A stretch of 53,894 bases of DNA, taken from the IMG/VR virus record IMGVR_UViG_3300020392_000021, positions 1 to 53,894 of that record; one strand, 5' to 3'. The position numbers were made by a program, and so were the translations under genes. The notes under the pieces are model-generated. The model was not told where the DNA came from and searched no databases. It saw only the letters and a program-made list of their open reading frames with translations. This DNA is from a virus. This document shows positions 871 to 48,692 of this stretch, piece by piece (within the stretch, counting starts at the first letter, position 1; each line of letters opens with the position of its first letter).

Positions 871-1560
871 TTAATCTGACAGAAAATTATTTAATCCATC
901 TACTAGTAAATTCTTATCTGTTTTTTTAGATTCAGACATTTGTTGTTCTTCTTTAGATGGTGACTCATTATATATCCAAGATCCTGGTGTTGATGGTGAG
1001 GTAACTACATCCCAACAGATTAATTCAAAATCATCTTGAACAACATTTTTTCCGTTTTCTTTCTTTAATGAACCTACACCTCTAGAAGATACACCAATCT
1101 TTAAACCCTTTCTTAAAAGGTTTGCAACTTGATCACCTTCACATGAAATAATACCTTGTGTTACAAAACCTGGAGACATAATAATTTCTAATTTACCCAT
1201 CATCACATTTCCTTCCCACCACAATTCTGTAACGTTATGTGAAATTCTACTTATTGCAACAATAGAAGATTCTGGGTGATCAGCCTCCCCCATAGCTCTT
1301 TTTTCATTTATTAATTTCATATAATTTTCACCTTCTTTCTTAAGAATGTTTTCAGGATAAACTCTACCATTCCTATTTTCAACACCATATTTTTGTAATA
1401 CTGCATAAACAACCAAAGGTTCTTCAATAATTTGTTGACCTTTAGTTAGTTTATTTATTTCGTTAATAAAGTGTCTATTATCTTTAGGTGAAATATAACC
1501 AGCATCATACTCGACTAGTATACCTTTTTTATTTAGGTTATTGTTTTTTAAAATTTCCAT
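871..1560 (-). CDS. Prohead maturation protease, T4 gp21-like
   Basis: This 229-residue serine protease should process the prohead scaffold and every protein carrying an (L/I)-x-E site. The sequence shows the gp21 pattern in order: NGRVYPENIL (64-73), the GEADHP motif with likely catalytic His95, ISHNVTELWWEG (106-117), the IGVSSRGVGSL segment (155-165) with the candidate nucleophile Ser at 158/159, and WDVVTSPSTPG. It sits between portal and scaffold as in T4. The C-terminal tail is Ser/Lys-rich and may be removed on maturation. An ATATTTAT box precedes it by 20 nt. It is the likely processing enzyme for the leaders and polyproteins described elsewhere in the window. Confidence 0.9.
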   Translation of the reverse strand: MEILKNNNLNKKGILVEYDAGYISPKDNRHFINEINKLTKGQQIIEEPLVVYAVLQKYGVENRNGRVYPENILKKEGENYMKLINEKRAMGEADHPESSIVAISRISHNVTELWWEGNVMMGKLEIIMSPGFVTQGIISCEGDQVANLLRKGLKIGVSSRGVGSLKKENGKNVVQDDFELICWDVVTSPSTPGSWIYNESPSKEEQQMSESKKTDKNLLVDGLNNFLSD

Positions 1561-3225: not shown

Positions 3226-5184
3226 TTATTTTTCTTCTTCTTTTAAAATATTATCTATATCTGAAGACATTTTTTCTATCTTAGAGTTTATTGTGTTTAC
3301 TTCGTTATCCATACCTTCTACATTAAACACCCTTTCATCTGAATCAATACTTTCTATTAGTCTTTTTAAATATACGTTTTGATATTTTTTTGTTTTTTTA
3401 CTTAACTTTAATTTCTCTTGTTCTAATAGTAGGTTTTCTTTTTTACTTAAAGATTCCTCAGTAGGTGCAGCCTCTGTTTCTGTTTCACCTCCTGTATCAC
3501 CTCCTGTATCACCACCTGCGTCTGATCCCATATCACCAAAGCCACCTCCCATATCACCAAAACCTACACCTGTGTCGCCACCAGCAGCATCTCCACCTGC
3601 AGCATCTCCACCAGCAGCATCTCCACCAGCAGCATCTGCACCCAATGGATCACCATATAATGTATCAATTCTATCAAATATACCTGTTTTCTTAATTATA
3701 GTAGAAGTTTGTTCCATTTCTGCACCTGCAGCTTTTTCCATTCTTTGTTGTTCTAAATCAACTCTAATTTCTTCTTCAGACATTCCTAAAATATCTCTTT
3801 TCGCTCTAGTCATAGAATAAGCACCAAAACCATTACCTGCATCCGAAACTGCATCTTTATAAAGTGTTACTTTAAGTTGATTTTGTTCAATCTTTAACAT
3901 CTCCGCTTGTGTAGAAGGATTATTTAATGAAAGTGTGAAATTTTCTAAATCATCTTCTAACCCTAAAATATATAAATGTATTATTGCTAATTTATTTAAT
4001 TCTTGTATAATTGCTTGTTGTACTCTATTAATTGTTCTAGCAAATCTAATATCTTGTAATGCCAAATTTTTACCTTCACCATTAACTTCCTCAAAACCTA
4101 AAAATGGTTTAGGTACTCTTAAAGCGGTAAATAATTTTTTCTGTAAAAATTGTATATCTGCAATTTCAGATAAATTAGTTGCTCCAGGTAAAGTATCTAT
4201 TGGGCTAGGTGCATTAGGATCCCTAACAGGTACAAAATAATCTTGATCTTGTGCCATTTGATTGTATCTAGTGTCTATTTGTCCTGTTTGTTGATCAATT
4301 ACCGGACTTCTTTTAAAATTATCTGCAATCTTATTAACATATGCGGGAACATCTTTTTCATCAATATTACCAACGAAGATTTTAAAAATTCTTCTTTCGG
4401 GTGCTCTGGTAACTCTATATATTAACATTGCATCTTCAGAAAGTAATAATTGTTTCCATATCCTTCTAGCTTTTTCTAATATAGATGTACCATAAGGTAA
4501 TCTTCTATCATCACCTAATAATCTAAAATGTGCTACTTGCCAAGCATTAAACTCCATATCTTTTTGTCCCCACACAAATTTAACTGGATTAAATTTATCA
4601 TCTTTACTAGTGTTTGCATTTTCACCAAAACCGTCATTTTCTTTTCTACTAATTTCTATATTAGGTAATTGTTTTACACTTTGTATCCCATTTTCACTGT
4701 CTATCGATAGATATAAGAAATTATCTCCGTACTTACATGTATTTCTTACCCACATAGGTAAATTAGTATGGATATCTAATCTATTAAAAAATAGATCTTG
4801 TAATATCCTCCTTACCCTTTTACTTTCAGAAAATATATTTAATATTCTACCATCATTATTAGGTGTAGTAGACTCTTCCATAAAAATATCTAAAGCCGCC
4901 GCAATTTCGGGAAAAAATTCCATACCCTCGAAATCAGCATAAGAAGCTAATCTCGTAGTTTCGTAATAAATAGAATGTTGATATATTTCGTTATCAACCT
5001 TCTTCCATTGATTAGATAAATAAGCGTCTTGTTGTTTTTGTAATAACTCATAGTTATATTCTTCTTGTGATTTAGTTTTTAATAATTCTTTGTCATTTAA
5101 AGAATATCTAGATTTATTAGAAGTCTGTTTTCTTTCCGGACCAAATAAGTCACCTAATTGTTGAAATATTGTTTTTTTTGCCAT
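3226..5184 (-). CDS. Portal vertex protein, T4 gp20-like
   Basis: The 652-residue protein forms the dodecameric DNA channel at one capsid vertex. Family features include TTRLASYADFEGMEFFPEIA near residues 75-95, DIFMEESTTPN, RNTCKYGDNFLYL and the WQVAHFRLLGDDRRLPYGTS region, typical of T4-type portals. It lies directly after the terminase gene as in T4. Unusually, a Gly/Ala/Asp-rich low-complexity segment (four DAAGG units plus GFGDMGG repeats, about residues 515-565) is inserted before the C-terminal coiled coil. Repeats of this kind could give length variation. An ATATTTAT box lies 27 nt upstream. Confidence 0.92.
   Translation of the reverse strand: MAKKTIFQQLGDLFGPERKQTSNKSRYSLNDKELLKTKSQEEYNYELLQKQQDAYLSNQWKKVDNEIYQHSIYYETTRLASYADFEGMEFFPEIAAALDIFMEESTTPNNDGRILNIFSESKRVRRILQDLFFNRLDIHTNLPMWVRNTCKYGDNFLYLSIDSENGIQSVKQLPNIEISRKENDGFGENANTSKDDKFNPVKFVWGQKDMEFNAWQVAHFRLLGDDRRLPYGTSILEKARRIWKQLLLSEDAMLIYRVTRAPERRIFKIFVGNIDEKDVPAYVNKIADNFKRSPVIDQQTGQIDTRYNQMAQDQDYFVPVRDPNAPSPIDTLPGATNLSEIADIQFLQKKLFTALRVPKPFLGFEEVNGEGKNLALQDIRFARTINRVQQAIIQELNKLAIIHLYILGLEDDLENFTLSLNNPSTQAEMLKIEQNQLKVTLYKDAVSDAGNGFGAYSMTRAKRDILGMSEEEIRVDLEQQRMEKAAGAEMEQTSTIIKKTGIFDRIDTLYGDPLGADAAGGDAAGGDAAGGDAAGGDTGVGFGDMGGGFGDMGSDAGGDTGGDTGGETETEAAPTEESLSKKENLLLEQEKLKLSKKTKKYQNVYLKRLIESIDSDERVFNVEGMDNEVNTINSKIEKMSSDIDNILKEEEK
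3578..3637 (-). repeat. Four 15-bp tandem repeats in the portal gene
   Basis: The unit CCACCAGCAGCATCT is repeated at 3578-3592, 3593-3607 (one change), 3608-3622 and 3623-3637. It encodes DAAGG units of the portal protein's low-complexity segment. Confidence 0.9.
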
Positions 5185-5236: not shown

Positions 5237-7030
5237 TTACTTTATACCAAATAACCAATTATATTCACCATTATCAGTATTATTATGGTTTTGTTTAGGA
5301 TTATAAGTAGGGGTATTACTATAAAATGGGTTAGTATGAATAGGTTTAGGTGTAATTTTATTACTACTGTTACTAACAGTTGTCCAACTATCTAACATTG
5401 CTCTTGTTTGATTTTCTGCCTGTTTTAATTTTTTAAACGTTGTTTGAACTACAAATAATGGCATTGCCAATGCCATTATGATATCATCATGATATCCATC
5501 CATATGATCGGGCCTACCATTTCTATAAACAAAAGTTTTTAATTCTGATATTAACCTAACAGAACGAATTATTGTTTTATTTTCTCTTATGTGTTCTTCT
5601 AAATCACTAACCATTTGTAATCTACTACTACCAACATTAAAACCAGGTACTTTATCACCTTGTTTATATAATGTTTTAACGTATTTCTCACTTAATTTTC
5701 TACTTTTAGGATCATCATAATGTAAATGTTCATACCCCATCTCTAATAATTTCATTACAGTAGAAACTCCCATACCACCTGTAATATCTACTACAGTATA
5801 TGCATTATATAAGTTACCATATTTATAAACTATTTCTGCCAATAGATCTGGAGGTAATTTATACTTAAATTCTGCAACTTGTTCTAAGTTTTCAAAATCC
5901 AATATTACAATAGTAGAGCTATCTTTCCCATCTCCTCTAGAAACATCTACACCCATAATATATTTATGTCCGTCTTCAGGTTCTTTCCATATCCACATAG
6001 ATTTTTCCATCTCTGCCTTATATTTTGGTTCTTGTACATTATTTTTTTCTTGAAACTCTATGTATTCTTCATCTATTACATTACCTCCTGAAGAAACAAA
6101 GGATACGTCTAATTCCTGTGCTATTTGTTTTTTGTCCCCATTCATATCTCTACACATTTCTTCATACCACGGAGAAGAACCTTTCCACCCATCTTTTACC
6201 ATCACATTATAGTCACTTATATCAATACTATTAGTTTCATATGTTTTACCACTGTATTCCCATCTCAATGTTTCTCTACCTACCGTTTCACATTCAATAA
6301 CTTCGTCTTCACCTCTTAACCATTTTAAACCCCTATTATATCTAATATCTTCATGCCACCTCATTTCGATTATATTGAAGTTATTATCACCTTGTTTAGC
6401 ACCATCATAAGTTTTATAGTATAATGCATCTTGTCCGTTAGGTGTTGAAATTAAAGTTACTTTACCACCTGTACCTAACGAAGTTAGTGCAGCACCAAAT
6501 ACTTCTGCTCCTTTATCGATAAATGCCGCTTCATCCATAACTAAAAATGTTGGTGTATACCCCCTTAATGCATCTTTAGAAGTTGCTAACGCTTTTACTT
6601 CACATTGAGTGTCTTTAGTTTTAATATGTCCCTTAGATTCAATAGATAAATAAGATTCATCTTCGTCTATTCCCCATACCCATGATGGTATTTGATCTAG
6701 GAAATCTTTTATTTTTTTAAGGAACTCTTGTGCTAATGTTTGTTTATTCGCTAATACTAGTACTTTCCATGGATTATTAGGATCACCAAATGCAATCTTT
6801 GCTGCAATATATGCTGCAGTGGTAGTTGATACACCAGCCTGTCTAGGTTTAGTTACAATATTACGATTGTATTTTTCGTATGAACTAATTATTTCTTTTT
6901 GTTTATGAAATAGTTTAAAAGGAACGAACCCTTTTTGAGTTAAGTCATAAGTTTTAAGAAATGTTTCTATTGCATATATTGGATCACCTAAACACTTCGC
7001 ATATAATTTTAATTTTTCACCTCTATCCAT
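5237..7030 (-). CDS. Terminase large subunit, T4 gp17-like
   Basis: This 597-residue packaging motor and nuclease translocates DNA through the portal and cuts concatemers. Visible ATPase motifs are Walker A-like KPRQAGVST (61-69), Walker B LVMDEAAFI (162-170) and the coupling motif STPNG (195-199). The RNase H-like nuclease domain shows GVDVSRGDGKDSS with Asp361, VVDITGGMG with Asp414 and YHDDIIMA with Asp514/Asp515. Length and motif order match T4 gp17. A low-complexity Asn/Thr/Pro tail precedes the C-terminal YNWLFGIK. An ATATTTAT box is 15 nt upstream. No small terminase subunit is recognisable in the window. Confidence 0.95.
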   Translation of the reverse strand: MDRGEKLKLYAKCLGDPIYAIETFLKTYDLTQKGFVPFKLFHKQKEIISSYEKYNRNIVTKPRQAGVSTTTAAYIAAKIAFGDPNNPWKVLVLANKQTLAQEFLKKIKDFLDQIPSWVWGIDEDESYLSIESKGHIKTKDTQCEVKALATSKDALRGYTPTFLVMDEAAFIDKGAEVFGAALTSLGTGGKVTLISTPNGQDALYYKTYDGAKQGDNNFNIIEMRWHEDIRYNRGLKWLRGEDEVIECETVGRETLRWEYSGKTYETNSIDISDYNVMVKDGWKGSSPWYEEMCRDMNGDKKQIAQELDVSFVSSGGNVIDEEYIEFQEKNNVQEPKYKAEMEKSMWIWKEPEDGHKYIMGVDVSRGDGKDSSTIVILDFENLEQVAEFKYKLPPDLLAEIVYKYGNLYNAYTVVDITGGMGVSTVMKLLEMGYEHLHYDDPKSRKLSEKYVKTLYKQGDKVPGFNVGSSRLQMVSDLEEHIRENKTIIRSVRLISELKTFVYRNGRPDHMDGYHDDIIMALAMPLFVVQTTFKKLKQAENQTRAMLDSWTTVSNSSNKITPKPIHTNPFYSNTPTYNPKQNHNNTDNGEYNWLFGIK

Positions 7031-24255: not shown

Positions 24256-24326
24256 TCAAACAATATGAAAAAGTTAATCACATTATTATTAGTATTAGTA
24301 ACACTAAACAGTTATAGTCAGTCTAA
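24256..24326 (+). repeat. 71-bp repeat, copy 1 (5' leader plus signal peptide)
   Basis: This segment matches 42686-42756 with only two mismatches by eye. It covers the end of the untranslated leader and the codons for the signal peptide of two paralogous secreted proteins. Confidence 0.9.
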
Positions 24327-24888
24327 GAGAGAAGTTTACGATTATTATGAAGAAATAACCCACTATACAGAGTGTTGTGGTAGAAAAAAACCGTGTAAAT
24401 TTGAGAAGGACGTTAAAATATATGTAGATGGCGTTAAAAAACCTTATTTAATAACAGAGTTGAATAAGATTGTTGGTGAATTGAATGATTTAATTGAATC
24501 AATTAATATTTCTATAGTTAATGATAGTTCAGAATCTAATGTTTATCTATTTTTTGGGAATGCTGACGATTTTGCAGATAATTTGAACGATTCTGATAGA
24601 TGGAAGAAACATATTAGAAAAAGAGCAAAAAAATGTAACGGACTTTTCGTAATCACAACAAATTATAATAAAGATTACATAAAACATTCCGAAGTATTTA
24701 TAGATTTAGAAGCGGGTAATAGTATCAACAAAGAAAAACATACACTACGAGAAGAAATTACACAATGTTTAGGACTAACTAACGATTCTTATAAATATGA
24801 TGATAGTATATTTTATCAATTAAATAATGAAGTGACAAAATATTCAAAAATAGATAAAAAGATTATTAAATTATTTTATAACGAATAA
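24265..24888 (+). CDS. Secreted DUF2927-like protein, paralogue 1
   Basis: The ATG at 24265 gives a clean signal peptide, MKKLITLLLVLVTLNSYSQS, typical of Bacteroidota. The mature part (about 187 residues) has CCGRKKPCKFEKDVKIYVDG, LNDLIESINISIV and the family-like TLREEITQCLGLTNDSYKYD followed by DSIFYQ, close to the EExTQxLGLxND pattern of DUF2927. In that family this region looks zincin-like, but here no full HExxH is visible. A near-copy lies at 42695-43291. It ends four bases before the convergent gene at 24892. Confidence 0.75.
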   Translation: MKKLITLLLVLVTLNSYSQSKREVYDYYEEITHYTECCGRKKPCKFEKDVKIYVDGVKKPYLITELNKIVGELNDLIESINISIVNDSSESNVYLFFGNADDFADNLNDSDRWKKHIRKRAKKCNGLFVITTNYNKDYIKHSEVFIDLEAGNSINKEKHTLREEITQCLGLTNDSYKYDDSIFYQLNNEVTKYSKIDKKIIKLFYNE

Positions 24889-41487: not shown

Positions 41488-41748
41488 ATGGGTAGATTAT
41501 TAGACGGTATAGTAAGCTATTATGTAGATGAAGAAATTTTAACTGCAGATGGTTTCGATGATGCAGTCATAGGTATTGACGATAAAACAATGAGAGTAAT
41601 ATACTCAGTTACCAAATGCATTGAAATATTAATGACTGAAATGGATATGGGTATGGAAGAAGCAGTAGAATTCTTCGAATTTAACGTAAAAGGTTCTGAA
41701 TTAGGTGAAAAGACACCTATCTGGTGTGAAGATATGTTAATTGAATAG
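41488..41748 (+). CDS. Conserved small phage protein
   Basis: The 86-residue protein (MGRLLDGIVSYYVDEEILTA, DGFDDAVIGIDDKTMRVIYS, MGMEEAVEFFEFNVKGSELG, EKTPIWCEDMLIE) has the pattern FDDAxIGI...EEAxExFxFNV...GxxTPIW that I know as a widespread, uncharacterised phage protein. It is acidic and probably a small helical bundle. A variant ATATTTAA box (41467-41474) lies 13 nt upstream. Its end overlaps the convergent gene at 41737 by 12 bases. Confidence 0.7.
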   Translation: MGRLLDGIVSYYVDEEILTADGFDDAVIGIDDKTMRVIYSVTKCIEILMTEMDMGMEEAVEFFEFNVKGSELGEKTPIWCEDMLIE

Positions 41749-42591
41749 TTCGGGACTTTTTCTCATCAAATCTTCGTCTCTAGTATAGGTAGAACATCCC
41801 TTTTCAAGACAACGTTGGAGAAAATCTCTCCTTTCCCAATAGGCTTTGTCCCCACCAGCGACTTGATTACCGCCCCAAACATATTTTGGACAACCATCAC
41901 AACCATAATCGTCTTTAATAGGTGGTAATCCTTTGATTCTTTTAATACATTCCATAAATGCTTTCCATCTATCCCCAATAGTTTGGGAAGAGGTATTAAT
42001 TTTTTTAATACACATAAATATATCACCACATTGTTCGTCTCTAATATCTACATCTATTTCACCTAATTTAGGTATATCCTCATCACCAGTAATTGGAACG
42101 CCAGGACCATCAATTGGAACGTCTTTACCAGGATTTTCATCATCTATATCATCACATTTACATTGGAAAGGACAAAAATCATCTTTAGATAAACTGATAG
42201 TAAATTTTAAAACTTCACACATTTTATCTAATGTTTTAGGCCCAACTATACCATCAATGGATAATTTATGTGCTCTTTGAAACTCTTCTACCGCTTTTTT
42301 AGTTTCTCTTCTGAATTTACCGTCACAAACCGGCCATTCTTCAATACAACCTTTTTTAATTCCACCACCTTGTGCACCTTCATTAAAACCATTATTACCT
42401 AATAGATGTTGTATTTTTTTAACTATCTCACCATTAGAACCATATTTGGCGTGTCTAATATTACACTTAATTAAACATGTGTCAGTATCACCATTTTCTA
42501 TTCTACCCGCTCTACTTTCGGTTAATAAACCTAAATTTCTTCTGTTAGCTTCGTTTATTGCTTCTCTTTTTAATTTACTTAATCTTCCCAT
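41737..42591 (-). CDS. Leader-tagged peptidoglycan-binding protein
   Basis: The ATG at 42591 gives the leader MGRLSKLKREAINEANRRNL with INE|A (14) and LTE|S (25); a longer frame upstream would translate the promoter box and is rejected. Residues about 45-120 form a PG_binding_1 domain (NGEIVKKIQHLLGNNGFNEG; FRRETKKAVEEFQRAHKLSI; DGIVGPKTLDKMCEVL). The C-terminal half is Cys-rich (about ten Cys in CPFQCKC, CGDIFMC, CDGCPKY, CLEKGC), suggesting disulphides or a metal site. Likely a virion protein that binds the wall during entry. Confidence 0.75.
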   Translation of the reverse strand: MGRLSKLKREAINEANRRNLGLLTESRAGRIENGDTDTCLIKCNIRHAKYGSNGEIVKKIQHLLGNNGFNEGAQGGGIKKGCIEEWPVCDGKFRRETKKAVEEFQRAHKLSIDGIVGPKTLDKMCEVLKFTISLSKDDFCPFQCKCDDIDDENPGKDVPIDGPGVPITGDEDIPKLGEIDVDIRDEQCGDIFMCIKKINTSSQTIGDRWKAFMECIKRIKGLPPIKDDYGCDGCPKYVWGGNQVAGGDKAYWERRDFLQRCLEKGCSTYTRDEDLMRKSPELFN

Positions 42592-42608
42592 TACGAATGT
42601 TTTTTTAT

Positions 42609-42616
42609 ATAAATAT
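42609..42616 (-). promoter_or_regulatory. ATATTTAT box before the peptidoglycan-binding gene
   Basis: Minus-strand TTATATTTATATAAAAAAAC, 17 nt before the ATG. Confidence 0.45.
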
Positions 42617-42646
42617 AATGAAAACATAAAAAAAAATGTCTAATAG

Positions 42647-42678
42647 TTTGGTAGACTGGTTATTTATTTATATATTTG
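42647..42678 (+). promoter_or_regulatory. Host-type promoter for the second DUF2927-like gene
   Basis: TTTG (42647-42650), 20 nt, TATATTTG (42671-42678), 16 nt to the ATG; the -33 region shares TTTGGTAGA with copy 1 at 24218. Confidence 0.7.
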
Positions 42679-42685
42679 TATAAAA

Positions 42686-42756
42686 TCAAACAATATGAAA
42701 AAGTTAATCACACTATTATTAGTATTACTAACACTAAACAGTTATAGTCAGTCTAA
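42686..42756 (+). repeat. 71-bp repeat, copy 2 (5' leader plus signal peptide)
   Basis: Matches 24256-24326 with two mismatches by eye. Confidence 0.9.
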
Positions 42757-43291
42757 AGAAGAAATAGAAAATTATTTAGACACTATCATACATTATGTAG
42801 AAGGAAATGATAATAAATATATACCAACCAAATACTCAGAAGATGTTAAGATATATGTAGATGGTGATAAGAAACCTTATTTGTTAACAGAATTAGATAA
42901 AATTATAAACGAATTAAATGATTTAATTACCACAATAAATTTTAGTTTAGTAGAAAGTAAATCTAAATGTAATATGTATATATATTTTGGTGATGTTAAA
43001 GGGTATTCTAAAATAAGTGAAGATGTTTTAAGTAAAAAAAATGTTAACGGTTTTGGTGAAATTTATCCTGATCTAGATTATAATATAATTTATACATCAA
43101 TATTTATCAATATCGGTAAAGTTAAGGACATTAAAAGACAAAAACATGTTCTTAGAGAGGAAGTTACACAATCATTAGGGTTAACTAATGATACTTATCA
43201 ATATTTTGATAGTATGTTTTATCAAGGGTACTCTAATGTTACCGAATATTCTAATTTAGATAAAGAAATAATTAAATTATTTTATAACTAA
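42695..43291 (+). CDS. Secreted DUF2927-like protein, paralogue 2
   Basis: The 198-residue protein has the same signal peptide as its paralogue at 24265 (MKKLITLLLVLLTLNSYSQS) and the same layout: KYSEDVKIYVDGDKKPYLLT, LDKIINELNDLITTINFSLV and HVLREEVTQSLGLTNDTYQY followed by DSMFYQ. The mature halves have diverged much more than the signal region. Export to the periplasm or surface is expected. It converges with 43288 with a four-base overlap. Confidence 0.75.
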   Translation: MKKLITLLLVLLTLNSYSQSKEEIENYLDTIIHYVEGNDNKYIPTKYSEDVKIYVDGDKKPYLLTELDKIINELNDLITTINFSLVESKSKCNMYIYFGDVKGYSKISEDVLSKKNVNGFGEIYPDLDYNIIYTSIFINIGKVKDIKRQKHVLREEVTQSLGLTNDTYQYFDSMFYQGYSNVTEYSNLDKEIIKLFYN

Positions 43292-44736
43292 TTTTTATTT
43301 CTTTTATTTTTTCTTTTATTTTTCCTACCCCTTTCATTCTTTGTTTTATTCTTTTTATTCCATTTAAATAATTTTTTCGTCATTCCATCATCTGTGGAAT
43401 GTTTCTTAAGAATATCACAAGCTGCAAAAGTATGTAGTTTAACTACCTTATCATACTTATTAGGTGTACTTACCTCGACCTCTTTTCTTTTATTTAATGA
43501 TGGGATATCTAATTTTATTCTACCAACACCCTCATGACAATCAAAACCACCCTTCTTTTTCCACGGACCTAAATCTATACCATTTTTTCTAAATGTCTTT
43601 TTACACGCTGCAGTAATAACTAATTTACCATCATGTTTACCTATAATATCTTCGTTGAAGAATTCTTTATTATCTCCATCTATAGTTAATTTAAATACGT
43701 TCCTTCTACCCATACCTGGTTTACTACTATTTATAATTAATGCGTTATCCATAATTTTTTTATTATTTAAACTAGCATAATCATAAAGTACACCATCTCT
43801 ACCTGTTCTTTTTAGTTTATAACCATTAGCATAAATTTCATATATTGCGTGATTACAACTGTGTCCTGAACCATCATAAATAACTTCTATAGTAGAATTA
43901 TCAAAGCAAGTCTCAAACAATTCTGGAAGTTCTGGTTCTTCAGGATCTTTAGGGTCTTTAGGATCTTCAGGATCTTTAGGATCTTCAGGATTTTCTTTTT
44001 TAGCAACGCATTTACAATCAGGTTCTTTTAACCATATTGGTTTTTCTGGAGGACAACCACCCTCTGGTTCTTTACATTCATCAGTAATTTCTGTTTTAGG
44101 TACATAACAAATTTTTATTAGAATCTGAACTATCTGACCAGTATTTTTATATTTATCTTTTTTTCTATTCTTGTCCGTTGTACCTCCTGTATCTACAACT
44201 ACACCTTCAGTTTTAGATATTGCATTTTCTAGTACACCATCTTTAAATTTTATCTTCAAAGTATCCAACCCACCAGGACTATTTAATTTTTTAGCGACAT
44301 TATTTGCTCTATCAACTGCTAACTGTTTATTTTTTTTATAGTTACCACTATTTTTTTTATGTTTATATGTTCCTTTAGGTGGGTTTGATTTTCTGTCATT
44401 TGCAACATCTGGTTCTACAGAACCCCCATAATAGTTACTAGCACCACCTTTAACTGAAAATTCTGTTACGAATAAACCTATACCTTTATCAGATAGTTTT
44501 TTTAGTGTGGGATTCCCTTTAATTTTTTGATTTACTGCGTCTAAGAACCCTTTAAATGCGCCTGATCCAGTAGTAACACTAACGGGAAAATTACCAACAT
44601 GACTAACAACTTCACATACAGGTTTGTTCGGTATTTCTTTTTGTTCTAAAATTGGATTTTTGTAATTACCGTTTTGGTAAACCATCAAACCCTTCATTCG
44701 TTTTATTTCCTCGTTTAAAGTATTTCTTTTATTCAT
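43288..44736 (-). CDS. Leader-tagged OmpA-like protein with Pro/Glu/Asp linker and basic tail
   Basis: The RM-type leader MNKRNTLNEEIKRMKGLMVY has LNE|E (9) and ILE|Q (31). Residues about 75-215 show an OmpA-like pattern (FSVKGGASNYYGG, KNKQLAVDRANNVAKKLNSP). Then come a Cys-containing segment (CKEPEGGCPPEKPIWLKEPD), a linker of DPKDPEDPKD repeats and a C-terminal domain (TIEVIYDGSGHSCNHAIYEI ... VVKLHTFAACDILKKH). It ends in a polybasic tail (RGRKNKRKNKRNKN) that could hold DNA. An ATATTTAT box is 18 nt upstream. Confidence 0.68.
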   Translation of the reverse strand: MNKRNTLNEEIKRMKGLMVYQNGNYKNPILEQKEIPNKPVCEVVSHVGNFPVSVTTGSGAFKGFLDAVNQKIKGNPTLKKLSDKGIGLFVTEFSVKGGASNYYGGSVEPDVANDRKSNPPKGTYKHKKNSGNYKKNKQLAVDRANNVAKKLNSPGGLDTLKIKFKDGVLENAISKTEGVVVDTGGTTDKNRKKDKYKNTGQIVQILIKICYVPKTEITDECKEPEGGCPPEKPIWLKEPDCKCVAKKENPEDPKDPEDPKDPKDPEEPELPELFETCFDNSTIEVIYDGSGHSCNHAIYEIYANGYKLKRTGRDGVLYDYASLNNKKIMDNALIINSSKPGMGRRNVFKLTIDGDNKEFFNEDIIGKHDGKLVITAACKKTFRKNGIDLGPWKKKGGFDCHEGVGRIKLDIPSLNKRKEVEVSTPNKYDKVVKLHTFAACDILKKHSTDDGMTKKLFKWNKKNKTKNERGRKNKRKNKRNKN

Positions 44737-44754
44737 AAATTAATATTATATAAT

Positions 44755-44762
44755 ATAAATAT
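44755..44762 (-). promoter_or_regulatory. ATATTTAT box before the gene at 43288-44736
   Basis: Minus-strand CAATATATTTATATTATAT, 18 nt before the ATG. Confidence 0.45.
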
Positions 44763-44811
44763 ATTGATTTTATGAATAATTTTATATATATTATATAAAA
44801 CAGTTAAAGTT

Positions 44812-46077
44812 ATGAGTAAAATTTTATTATTGTTATTATTATTATTACCTGTAATGATTTTAACACAAACACCGTGTGCTACAGATGAATATAATAAACC
44901 CTTTATTGAAGAAAATCCACAAAGGTACGATAAAATAGAAAAAGATATACAAAACTATTTAAGAAGTCCGCAAAAGAAATCAGAAAATAGTTATATAATT
45001 CCAGTTGTAGTTCATATAGTCTATAACGATTGGAGAGAAAATCTTCATGACTCTATAATCTATCAACAATTAAAGGTTTTAAATGATAGATTTAACCTTA
45101 GAAACGCTGATACAGTATTATTAACTGATACCCTACAGAATTGGAAAGGTAATTTTAAAATATCATTTGAGTTGGCACATATTGATCCTGAAGGATATCC
45201 AACTACAGGAATTACAAGAACTAAAACAAATGTTGGTGAATTTTCTTATTATAGTAATAATGTTAAAAAATCAAGTCAAGGAAAAGTGGGTTGGCCAAAC
45301 GACAGATATCTTAATATTTGGATATGCGACCTCTATGATGGATTGATGGGTTATGCACAATTTCCTGGCGGTGAAGACTGGTCGGATGGAGTTGTTGTAG
45401 ATTGGCAAAGTGTTGGGGATAGAGTCTATTCTTGGACTTATCCAATGTTCAATAAATGGGCAAAAGGACATGTCCTTGTTCATGAAATAGGACATTGGTT
45501 AAACCTTCATCATCCTTGGGGAGATTGGGGTCCATGTGGAGAAGACTATATTCCAGAGACAGGTTTACAAGATGGACCTATTTACCCAAGTGCTGAATGT
45601 CCAGATACCCTATTTAGTCAATGTGATACACCAGAAAGGGTGTTTGTAAAACATTATATGGACTATGTAGGTGCAGATTGTATGTGTACTTTTACAAAAA
45701 ATCAAGTTGTTAGAGGTATTGCATCTTTGGAAACCTATAGAATAGATCTATTAAATAATTATGTACCAAAGCCACAGTTAACTGGTTTTGAGAATACGGT
45801 AGTTAGACCATCATTTACTAAAGGTAGAGTTATTTTACAATTTCCAGACTATGAAGGAGAACTACAAATCATAATTTATGATATGTTAGGGAGAATAGTT
45901 TATAGAGAATATACTACATTTCCATTTATTGATATGAGATTAAAATTAACTAACGGTAGTTACTTAATAGATGTACTTAAAAAAAGTGAAAGAGTATTTC
46001 AAAGAAAGATTATAATTAATAGTGCGTCACCATACGGTGCTAGTTTAAAACCAATAATAAATAAAGATAAAATTTAA
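44812..46077 (+). CDS. Secreted M43-type (pappalysin-like) metalloprotease with T9SS-like sorting domain
   Basis: The 421-residue protein has a signal peptide (MSKILLLLLLLLPVMILTQT), the propeptide-like YIIPVVVHIVYND, and the zinc motif VHEIGHWLNLHHPW with His224, His228 and His234 and catalytic Glu225. HYMDY supplies the Met-turn. Cys residues are spaced as in secreted M43 enzymes. The last ~80 residues (GRVILQFPDYEGELQIIIYD, MLGRIVYREYTTFPFIDMRL, TNGSYLIDVLKKSERVFQRK) resemble a type A T9SS C-terminal domain of Bacteroidota. This looks host-derived and would exit via host machinery. No promoter of either class is obvious upstream. Confidence 0.88.
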   Translation: MSKILLLLLLLLPVMILTQTPCATDEYNKPFIEENPQRYDKIEKDIQNYLRSPQKKSENSYIIPVVVHIVYNDWRENLHDSIIYQQLKVLNDRFNLRNADTVLLTDTLQNWKGNFKISFELAHIDPEGYPTTGITRTKTNVGEFSYYSNNVKKSSQGKVGWPNDRYLNIWICDLYDGLMGYAQFPGGEDWSDGVVVDWQSVGDRVYSWTYPMFNKWAKGHVLVHEIGHWLNLHHPWGDWGPCGEDYIPETGLQDGPIYPSAECPDTLFSQCDTPERVFVKHYMDYVGADCMCTFTKNQVVRGIASLETYRIDLLNNYVPKPQLTGFENTVVRPSFTKGRVILQFPDYEGELQIIIYDMLGRIVYREYTTFPFIDMRLKLTNGSYLIDVLKKSERVFQRKIIINSASPYGASLKPIINKDKI

Positions 46078-47810: not shown

Positions 47811-48692
47811 TTACAACATAATAGATACGATTGCACCACCTTTAGCAAAACTAATTTTCGCAACTTTACCTTTTCCACTATTATTTGCAGCGTTGTTAAT
47901 TGCATTTACAATATCTTCTCTTTCTTCAGTATCACTACCCATACCTGTTAACCCATCAGTAATAGTATTATTTATAAATCCTTCTAATCCACCGTTGTTT
48001 CTTAATTCATAATCTAAGTCTACAATATCTGAATATGTTTCTAATTCTTTTATTGCGTTTACAATTGATTCTTCATCTTCATGACCCAAATAATCTGCAC
48101 CCCTCATTTTATCACCCACACTACCAATAGATTTTTTATCTAATCCCATAGTTGTAAGTGGACTAATTACGACAAAACCATATCTATCCATATCTCTAGG
48201 TAGTGATCTATTCCTATCATAAATTGGGTTTAAATCACTAGGTTTGTAAGATGAATTACTATTAGTGGTAATTAAGTCTTCTATTACATCTTTAGCCACA
48301 TATTTACCTGTAATATCACCCACAATATCAAATGACATAAAAACTATATCTTTCATTTCTTCCATTCTAGATCTACCTAATTCTGCATTTCTATCTCTAC
48401 TACCAGTAGAGGATGTACCACTACCAATGGTAATGAATTTAGGGATGTTTTTTTCCGCTCTAAATCTTTCTATAGTTGGTAATGATCTCATAATGTCTCT
48501 AGATAAGTGTTGTGCTGCCATTTTTTTATCACTATCAGATATTGTGTCCTTACCCTCTTCAAAAAACATTTGATATCCAACATCTCCTTCACTTTTATCT
48601 ATAACTGGTTCTATACCTAATTTATCTTCACCTAATAATCTTTTATTAGATTCTAATATTAATTCTCTTTTTAATTTTGCTAATCTTCCCAT
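47811..48692 (-). CDS. Leader-tagged OmpA-like protein
   Basis: The leader MGRLAKLKRELILESNKRLL has ILE|S (14) and LGE|D (22) and matches that of the peptidoglycan-binding gene at 41737. The core IPKFITIGSGTSSTGSRDRN then AELGRSRMEEMKDIVF is OmpA-like (GxTSxxGxxxxNxxLxxxRA). The C-terminal part is hydrophobic and Gly-rich (NNSGKGKVAKISFAKGGAIV). Total length 293 residues. It probably contacts peptidoglycan. The box at 48707-48714 precedes it. Confidence 0.68.
   Translation of the reverse strand: MGRLAKLKRELILESNKRLLGEDKLGIEPVIDKSEGDVGYQMFFEEGKDTISDSDKKMAAQHLSRDIMRSLPTIERFRAEKNIPKFITIGSGTSSTGSRDRNAELGRSRMEEMKDIVFMSFDIVGDITGKYVAKDVIEDLITTNSNSSYKPSDLNPIYDRNRSLPRDMDRYGFVVISPLTTMGLDKKSIGSVGDKMRGADYLGHEDEESIVNAIKELETYSDIVDLDYELRNNGGLEGFINNTITDGLTGMGSDTEEREDIVNAINNAANNSGKGKVAKISFAKGGAIVSIML

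What the first reader, a model, noticed from the sequence alone, without database searches (positions are those of the whole stretch)
44812..46077. Phage-encoded M43 metalloprotease with a type IX secretion-type C-terminal domain
Signal peptide, HEIGHWLNLHH zinc site and a C-terminal YDMLGRIVYR...GSYLIDV...RKIIIN pattern indicate export by the host's T9SS, which exists only in Bacteroidota. A phage using this pathway would alter the surface or surroundings of the infected cell, for example to remove receptors, block superinfection or help release. I do not know of a described phage case.
Basis: partly seen in the sequence, partly recalled or inferred. Interest (0 to 1): 0.85.

Follow-up and report, generated by a model that had tools for sequence, protein, structure and literature searches.

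The report
Phage-encoded secreted surface protease
A large T4-like phage, probably of Bacteroidota bacteria, carries a gene for a zinc protease that bears an export tag for the host's own type IX secretion machine, so the infected cell probably puts a phage protease on its surface; phage genes with this tag have been reported before, but the report known to me covers other enzymes.

Summary
ORF 44812-46077 (+) is a complete M43B (pappalysin) metalloprotease: signal peptide, pro-region with the mirolysin-type switch cysteine (Cys22), HEIGHWLNLHH, Met-turn, and a C-terminal Ig-like domain of the T9SS type A sorting family. The window copy scores just below the TIGR04183 cut-off (21.8 against 23 bits), but six homologues in other viral records all exceed it (27.8-36.1). 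The predicted tail structure best matches a T9SS cargo tail solved on the translocon (NucA, Z 11.4, 1.9 A). The contig is a T4-like phage (terminase, gp20-type portal, S77 prohead protease) and is not chimeric at this gene: an independent 160-kb record has the gene with the same right flank at 80-96% nucleotide identity. Nine phage proteins form one clade (support 100/100) outside all sampled bacterial ones, under purifying selection. The nearest cultured Bacteroidota phage, Flavobacterium phage immuto, also encodes a T9SS-tagged protein. Most likely function: host T9SS-exported surface proteolysis during infection; the target (receptor shaving, release or feeding) is untested. An unexplained 18-residue extension follows the sorting domain.

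The parts
44812..46077 (+). Gene for the M43B metalloprotease with a T9SS type A sorting domain (421 aa)
44812..44865 (+). Predicted signal peptide (residues 1-18, MSKILLLLLLLLPVMILT); cleavage before Gln19 is inferred from the mirolysin start Q20RTC
   Evidence: Hydropathy scan; N-terminus conserved in kind in all homologues; mirolysin NTP start from PMC8259862. No dedicated signal-peptide program was available.
44866..44991 (+). Pro-region (residues 19-60) with switch cysteine Cys22 (44875-44877), at the place of mirolysin Cys23
   Evidence: Cys22 invariant in 29 aligned M43 proteins; aligned with the promirolysin cysteine; role from PMC8259862
44992..45759 (+). Catalytic domain (residues 61-316); zinc site HEIGHWLNLHH at 45481-45513, Met-turn HYMDYV at 45652-45669
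   Evidence: ulilysin 2j83 E 1.9e-24; promirolysin 6r7v E 8.7e-24
45784..46020 (+). T9SS type A C-terminal sorting domain (residues 325-403), seven-stranded beta-sandwich
46021..46074 (+). C-terminal extension beyond the sorting domain (residues 404-421, SASPYGASLKPIINKDKI), low model confidence, motif S-x-SP(Y/F)GA shared by five phage proteins
42695..43291 (+). Neighbouring secreted protein, DUF2927 family (PF11150 E 5.6e-19)
24265..24888 (+). Paralogous secreted DUF2927 protein (PF11150 E 5.9e-26; 53% identical to the other, near-identical signal peptide)
3226..5184 (-). Portal protein, T4 gp20 type (phrog_213 E 4.2e-61)
5237..7030 (-). Terminase large subunit (phrog_2 E 3.5e-47)
871..1560 (-). 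Prohead core protease, Peptidase_S77 (E 2.4e-24)

Best explanation
A T4-like phage, most likely of an aquatic Bacteroidota, encodes a zymogen metalloprotease of the mirolysin/ulilysin type. [quoted passage not shown] On the cell surface or in the medium the pro-region with its switch cysteine is removed and the protease cuts proteins there. Shown by computation: gene, domains, intact active site, sorting domain, conservation in nine phage contigs, purifying selection. Inferred: Sec/T9SS export, late timing, activation. [quoted passage not shown]
For: Domain and motif evidence. All six orthologues first found pass the TIGR04183 cut-off. The full model (pLDDT 85) superposes on ulilysin and promirolysin; the tail model (pLDDT 88) best matches the NucA cargo tail in the T9SS translocon complex (8glk_D, Z 11.4, 1.9 A over 74 residues), then the mirolase tail (8qb1), with PorZ, PorU, RemA and FspA tails also listed. 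Terminase and/or portal on the same record in five of eight viral records of the clade. One independent record shares right-flank synteny. Clade support 100/100. dN/dS about 0.07 (catalytic) and about 0.2 (tail) among close copies. In L005 the gene lies downstream of a gp23-like capsid gene on the same strand, one gene between, which fits late expression. The nearest cultured Bacteroidota phage by terminase, portal and prohead protease is Flavobacterium phage immuto, which has its own T9SS-tagged protein. T9SS mutations give phage resistance in Flavobacterium columnare (PMC9233685), and SprB/RemA are named as possible phage receptors (PMC13288928).
Against: No expression, secretion or activity data. 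The host is inferred: a portal relative is annotated as a Microcystis phage, and one clade member lies in a contig of a Prochlorococcus single-cell genome; T9SS is confined to Bacteroidota and its superphylum (PMC7468147). The window copy is just under the T9SS profile cut-offs, and five phage copies, including this one, carry about 13-37 residues after the sorting domain, where tails of bacterial cargo end; this could weaken recognition. The mirolysin zymogen activates slowly in vitro (days, PMC8259862), which is slow against a lytic cycle. Nothing in the sequence tells the substrate.
Confidence: 0.6

Rival explanations
1. Nutritional or environmental proteolysis: the phage adds an exported peptidase so that the infected cell gains amino acids from proteins outside during a long infection, as an auxiliary gene; surface receptors are not the target.
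For: Bacteroidota themselves commonly have T9SS-tagged M43 proteases. The gene sits in varying neighbourhoods like an accessory gene. Bellas et al. found T9SS-tagged glycoside hydrolases in Cryophage.
Against: A cell near lysis gains little from slow extracellular digestion (inference). The gene is kept under strong purifying selection over large divergence, without linked peptide uptake genes seen in the ORFs read.
Confidence: 0.2
2. Release or spread aid: the protease loosens the surface layer, gliding adhesins or extracellular matrix so that progeny leave the debris or biofilm.
For: In L005 the gene lies shortly downstream of the major capsid gene, fitting late expression. A peptidoglycan-binding protein gene and another secreted protein lie nearby in the window.
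Against: The window gene is on the strand opposite to the structural genes, and a late-promoter test was negative. No linked holin or spanin was identified.
Confidence: 0.2
3. Virion-associated protease that acts during entry, the Ig-like tail being a virion attachment domain.
For: Some other viral M43 domains sit inside very large proteins without a signal peptide (L024, L031, L032). Ig-like domains are common on virions (general knowledge).
Against: Every member of this clade has an N-terminal signal peptide and a pro-region, and the tail falls with T9SS cargo tails rather than generic Ig domains in both profile and structure searches.
Confidence: 0.06
4. Non-functional passenger or assembly artefact: a host gene joined to a phage contig, or decaying cargo.
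For: The window tail is just below curated cut-offs, and there is an odd C-terminal extension.
Against: Nine phage contigs, shared right flank in an independent record, a clade separate from bacterial genes, intact catalytic residues and low dN/dS.
Confidence: 0.03

Closest known systems
Mirolysin (Tannerella forsythia, M43B, KLIKK protease; PDB 6r7u/6r7v/6r7w) and ulilysin (2cki, 8cdb)
   Same: Catalytic domain 36-40% identical and same fold; pro-region with switch cysteine at the same place (QTPC against QRTC); mirolysin also carries a T9SS tail (PMC8259862)
   Different: Phage-encoded; belongs to a separate long-stem clade; extra residues after the sorting domain; specificity not known
T9SS type A cargo of Flavobacterium johnsoniae (NucA, RemA, FspA tails on the SprA-PorV translocon; 8glk, 8gl6, 8glj) and mirolase tail (8qb1)
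   Same: Predicted tail fold matches NucA at Z 11.4, 1.9 A, 74 residues; profile match
   Different: About 22% sequence identity; 18 further residues at the C-terminus in the window copy
Cryophage T9SS-tagged cargo (Bellas et al. 2020, PMC7468147)
   Same: Phage genes with T9SS type A sorting domains in variable modules of the genome
   Different: Cargo there is an endoglucanase, a GH39 enzyme and a PA14 protein; here it is an M43 protease in T4-like phages
Flavobacterium phage vB_FspM_immuto gene immuto26A_15 (QQO91694, cohesin domain plus T9SS tail)
   Same: Cultured T4-like Bacteroidota phage, the nearest such isolate; T9SS tail 46.5 bits
   Different: Cohesin domain instead of a protease; annotated only as a cohesin domain protein

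Membership tests
M43B pappalysin metalloproteases | Catalytic domain profile match above curated cut-off | tested here: met
   PF05572 44.4 bits against 23; mirolysin E 1.3e-50
M43B pappalysin metalloproteases | HExxHxxxxxH zinc site and Met-turn | tested here: met
   H224 E225 H228 H234 and M283 invariant in 29 aligned sequences
M43B pappalysin metalloproteases | Pappalysin fold | tested here: met
   Foldseek ulilysin E 1.9e-24, promirolysin E 8.7e-24
M43B pappalysin metalloproteases | Zinc-dependent proteolytic activity | not testable with these tools
   needs purified protein
T9SS type A cargo (TIGR04183 / PF18962) | Sorting domain profile above the curated cut-off | tested here: inconclusive
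   Window copy 21.8 against 23 and 23.4 against 27 bits; all six orthologues exceed the TIGR04183 cut-off, 27.8-36.1 bits
T9SS type A cargo (TIGR04183 / PF18962) | Ig-like tail structure as in solved T9SS cargo | tested here: met
   8glk_D Z 11.4 and 8qb1_A Z 10.7, first two of 996 chains
T9SS type A cargo (TIGR04183 / PF18962) | N-terminal Sec signal peptide | tested here: met
   Hydropathy heuristic and all homologues; no dedicated predictor was at hand
T9SS type A cargo (TIGR04183 / PF18962) | Sorting domain at the very C-terminus (usual, whether strictly required is not settled here) | tested here: inconclusive
   The domain is the last folded domain, but 18 residues follow it in the window copy; in L004, L006, L007 and L021 it is terminal
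T9SS type A cargo (TIGR04183 / PF18962) | T9SS-dependent secretion | not testable with these tools
   needs expression in a T9SS host and a T9SS mutant
Phage-encoded T9SS cargo (Cryophage kind) | Gene lies in a phage genome | tested here: met
   Terminase, portal and prohead protease in the window; clade members in other phage records
Phage-encoded T9SS cargo (Cryophage kind) | Phage infects a T9SS-bearing (Bacteroidota) host | tested here: inconclusive
   Terminase, portal and prohead protease near Flavobacterium phage immuto but also near Microcystis phage Mel-JY01

The most novel reading that the evidence does not exclude
Large T4-like and jumbo phages of Bacteroidota routinely arm the infected cell's surface with their own T9SS cargo, and this M43 clade is a long-standing phage-specific tool, a zymogen that shaves the T9SS-exported adhesins used as receptors, giving superinfection exclusion through the host's own secretion machine; the phage-specific C-terminal extension would tune export or anchoring.
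Probability: 0.25. Interest if true: 0.78.

Novelty: new member of a known kind. Interest (0 to 1): 0.52.

Why it matters
It adds a protease to the few known phage-encoded T9SS cargos, shows that such a gene can be an old phage-resident family rather than a recent host pick-up, and points to a cultured phage-host pair (immuto on Flavobacterium sp. LMO8) where T9SS hijacking by a phage can be tested directly. T9SS components and cargo are linked to phage resistance in Flavobacterium, so a phage protease sent out by the same route would be a direct link between secretion, receptors and superinfection.

Tried and rejected
Late promoter: TATAAATA is enriched in the window (42 against 22 expected), but only 6 of 63 genes have it upstream in sense and 12 in antisense, so no promoter claim is made, although one copy lies 51-58 bases before this gene. 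First genome-contig scan found nothing because its peptide patterns were unsuitable; the second worked. Separate capture of the L022/L023 protease: the quick tree suggested it, but the AU test did not reject one clade with the window group (p 0.967), and the quick tree contained badly placed long rows; the careful tree puts L022 elsewhere, but I leave the number of captures open. PorV in phage records: no match, but the control search was silent too, so it says nothing. Looking for further T9SS tails in the phages collection by tblastn found only the immuto isolates; tails are too divergent for this. TIGR04183 in four other records (Mel-JY01, a 484-kb uncultured phage, Tenacibaculum phage PTm1, Cellulophaga phage phi14:2) gave no match. 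Tail as a generic fibronectin-like domain: such domains score Z up to 9.6, below the two T9SS cargo tails at 11.4 and 10.7. Rfam was not searched (no RNA question) and no tRNA was found.

Full report
Check of the observation. ORF 44812-46077 (+) codes for 421 residues. Pfam finds Peptidase_M43 at E 2e-11, above its cut-off, and Por_Secre_tail below its cut-off (19.7 against 27 bits). NCBIfam finds TIGR04183 over residues 337-403 with 21.8 bits against a cut-off of 23. A search of solved structures finds promirolysin (E 1.3e-50) and ulilysin (E 2e-47) over residues 22-312. The zinc site, the Met-turn and the switch cysteine (Cys22, opposite mirolysin Cys23; PMC8259862) are all present and invariant in 29 aligned relatives.

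Is the tail really a T9SS sorting domain? Taken alone it is borderline, so relatives were used. A scan of viral contigs found homologues at 52-86% identity in six other records of 49-160 kb, and an alignment-based scan added a 51% homologue in a 380-kb record. The six first records all pass the TIGR04183 cut-off at the end of this gene (27.8-36.1 bits), and so does the 380-kb one (38.8 bits). All 23 tails in a mixed phage and bacterial alignment match PF18962 at E up to 0.01. AlphaFold2 gave a confident model (mean pLDDT 85; tail alone 88). The tail's first two structural matches are the NucA cargo tail bound to the T9SS translocon (8glk_D, Z 11.4, 1.9 A, 74 residues) and the mirolase tail (8qb1, Z 10.7); RemA, FspA and RemZ cargo tails and the T9SS proteins PorU and PorZ also appear. 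Fibronectin domains follow at Z up to 9.6.

Is it a phage gene and not a chimera? The window has a terminase, a gp20-type portal and an S77 prohead protease; the nearest isolates are Flavobacterium phage immuto and Microcystis phage Mel-JY01. Terminase and/or portal were found on the window and on the records of L002, L005, L006 and L021. L003, from a record of another sample, shares the protease gene (85% nucleotide identity) and the genes to its right (80-96% by segment) with the window. To the left, L003 has the 86-residue gene of window 41488-41748 directly before the protease, so the 3 kb between them in the window (a peptidoglycan-binding protein, a DUF2927 protein and another ORF) are not between them there. 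The gene lies in different neighbourhoods in L002, L004, L005, L006 and L007.

Relationship to bacterial proteins. Many Bacteroidota copies have T9SS-like tails. A careful tree of 67 catalytic domains puts the window protein and eight other phage proteins in one clade (bootstrap 100, SH-aLRT 100) on a stem of 1.4 changes per column, with all bacterial rows on the other side. One member (L044) is in a contig assigned to a Prochlorococcus single-cell genome, but it sits near a methyltransferase gene like that near the protease in L004 and is most simply a phage contig. Catalytic-domain dN/dS is about 0.07 among the close copies and 0.14-0.28 for the tail: both parts are kept.

Other T9SS tails in phages. 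The 49-kb record of L007 has a second T9SS-tagged ORF. Records of 137, 172, 246 and 464 kb that carry other M43 genes have one to four T9SS-tagged ORFs each, above the cut-off; terminase and mostly portal genes are on these records. The cultured immuto phage has a 243-residue protein with a signal peptide, a cohesin domain and a T9SS tail. In the library of predicted viral structures the tail matches a protein named 'Secretion system C-terminal sorting domain [uncultured Caudovirales phage]' and one named 'Protease 1 [uncultured marine phage]'. T9SS-tagged phage proteins are therefore a recurring thing in large phages, not a peculiarity of this window.

Mechanism. Shown: an intact secreted-type zymogen with an export tag, conserved in phages. 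Inferred from established knowledge of Sec and T9SS: export by the host. Timing: in L005 the gene lies downstream of a gp23-like major capsid gene on the same strand with one gene between (the capsid gene was recognised by its N-terminal sequence and position after the prohead protease, not by a profile), so late expression is likely there; in the window no promoter evidence was obtained. Target: T9SS or gliding gene mutations give phage resistance in F. columnare (PMC9233685), and the T9SS adhesins SprB and RemA are named as possible receptors (PMC13288928), so shaving of such adhesins is my first choice; feeding and release remain open. Bellas et al. had proposed superinfection exclusion or inter-strain competition for Cryophage cargo.

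What does not fit. Five phage copies (window, L002, L003, L005, L044) have about 13-37 residues after the sorting domain, starting S-x-SP(Y/F)GA; the other phage copies and the bacterial tails aligned end at the domain. In the model this part is disordered. Whether export tolerates it is not known. The host is not proven.

Verdict. A true, well-conserved phage T9SS-tagged M43 protease; a new member of the already reported kind 'phage-encoded T9SS cargo', with an enzyme class not named for such cargo in the papers I could search. Interest is moderate.

Noticed in passing
window 24265-24888 (+) and 42695-43291 (+): Two paralogous DUF2927 proteins (53% identical) with almost identical signal peptides MKKLITLLLVL(V/L)TLNSYSQSK; with the M43 gene these are the only three ORFs in the window that passed a simple signal-peptide scan, all on the + strand. 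The conserved H-x-LREE-x-TQ-x-LGL stretch looks like a degenerate zincin motif. Only one other record (that of L003) of 14 has the family.
   Followed up: partly
window 46021-46074; ends of the genes in L002, L003, L005, L044: Conserved extension S-x-SP(Y/F)GA(N/S) after the sorting domain, only in five phage copies; not explained.
   Followed up: partly
window 41737-42627, 47811-48692; L003 3813-4697, 4699-5400: Several otherwise different proteins begin with the same type of basic tag (MGRLxKLKRExIxExNxRLL); this resembles the capsid targeting sequences of T4-like internal head proteins (from memory, not tested).
   Followed up: no
L031, L032, L024: M43 domains embedded in very large phage-record proteins (1133 to over 4000 residues) without signal peptide, with repeats; possible virion proteases.
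   Followed up: no
L027-L030: M43 lipoprotein-like proteins (no T9SS tail) in viral records up to 465 kb; the 465-kb record also has four T9SS-tagged ORFs.
   Followed up: partly
L131 28-2923 (Flavobacterium phage immuto genes 13-15): A secreted C-type lectin protein and a T9SS-tagged cohesin protein near each other (one hypothetical gene between) in a cultured phage; the T9SS tail is not annotated.
   Followed up: partly
L044 (QCKH01000018.1): Contig in a Prochlorococcus single-cell genome is most likely a phage contig: methyltransferase gene like that of L004 and the M43 gene of the phage clade.
   Followed up: partly
window 41747-44811 against L003 1-442: About 3 kb between the 86-residue gene and the protease in the window is not there in L003: a variable module next to the protease.
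   Followed up: partly
L002 7417-7959 and L004 2388-2927: A conserved phage lipoprotein (MKK..CxKIDENGFK...) is directly upstream of the M43 gene in L002 and elsewhere on the same locus in L004.
   Followed up: no
hits of P0001's model in the library of viral structures: Ulilysin-like proteases are also predicted in giant viruses (Tupanvirus, mimivirus, Yasminevirus).
   Followed up: no
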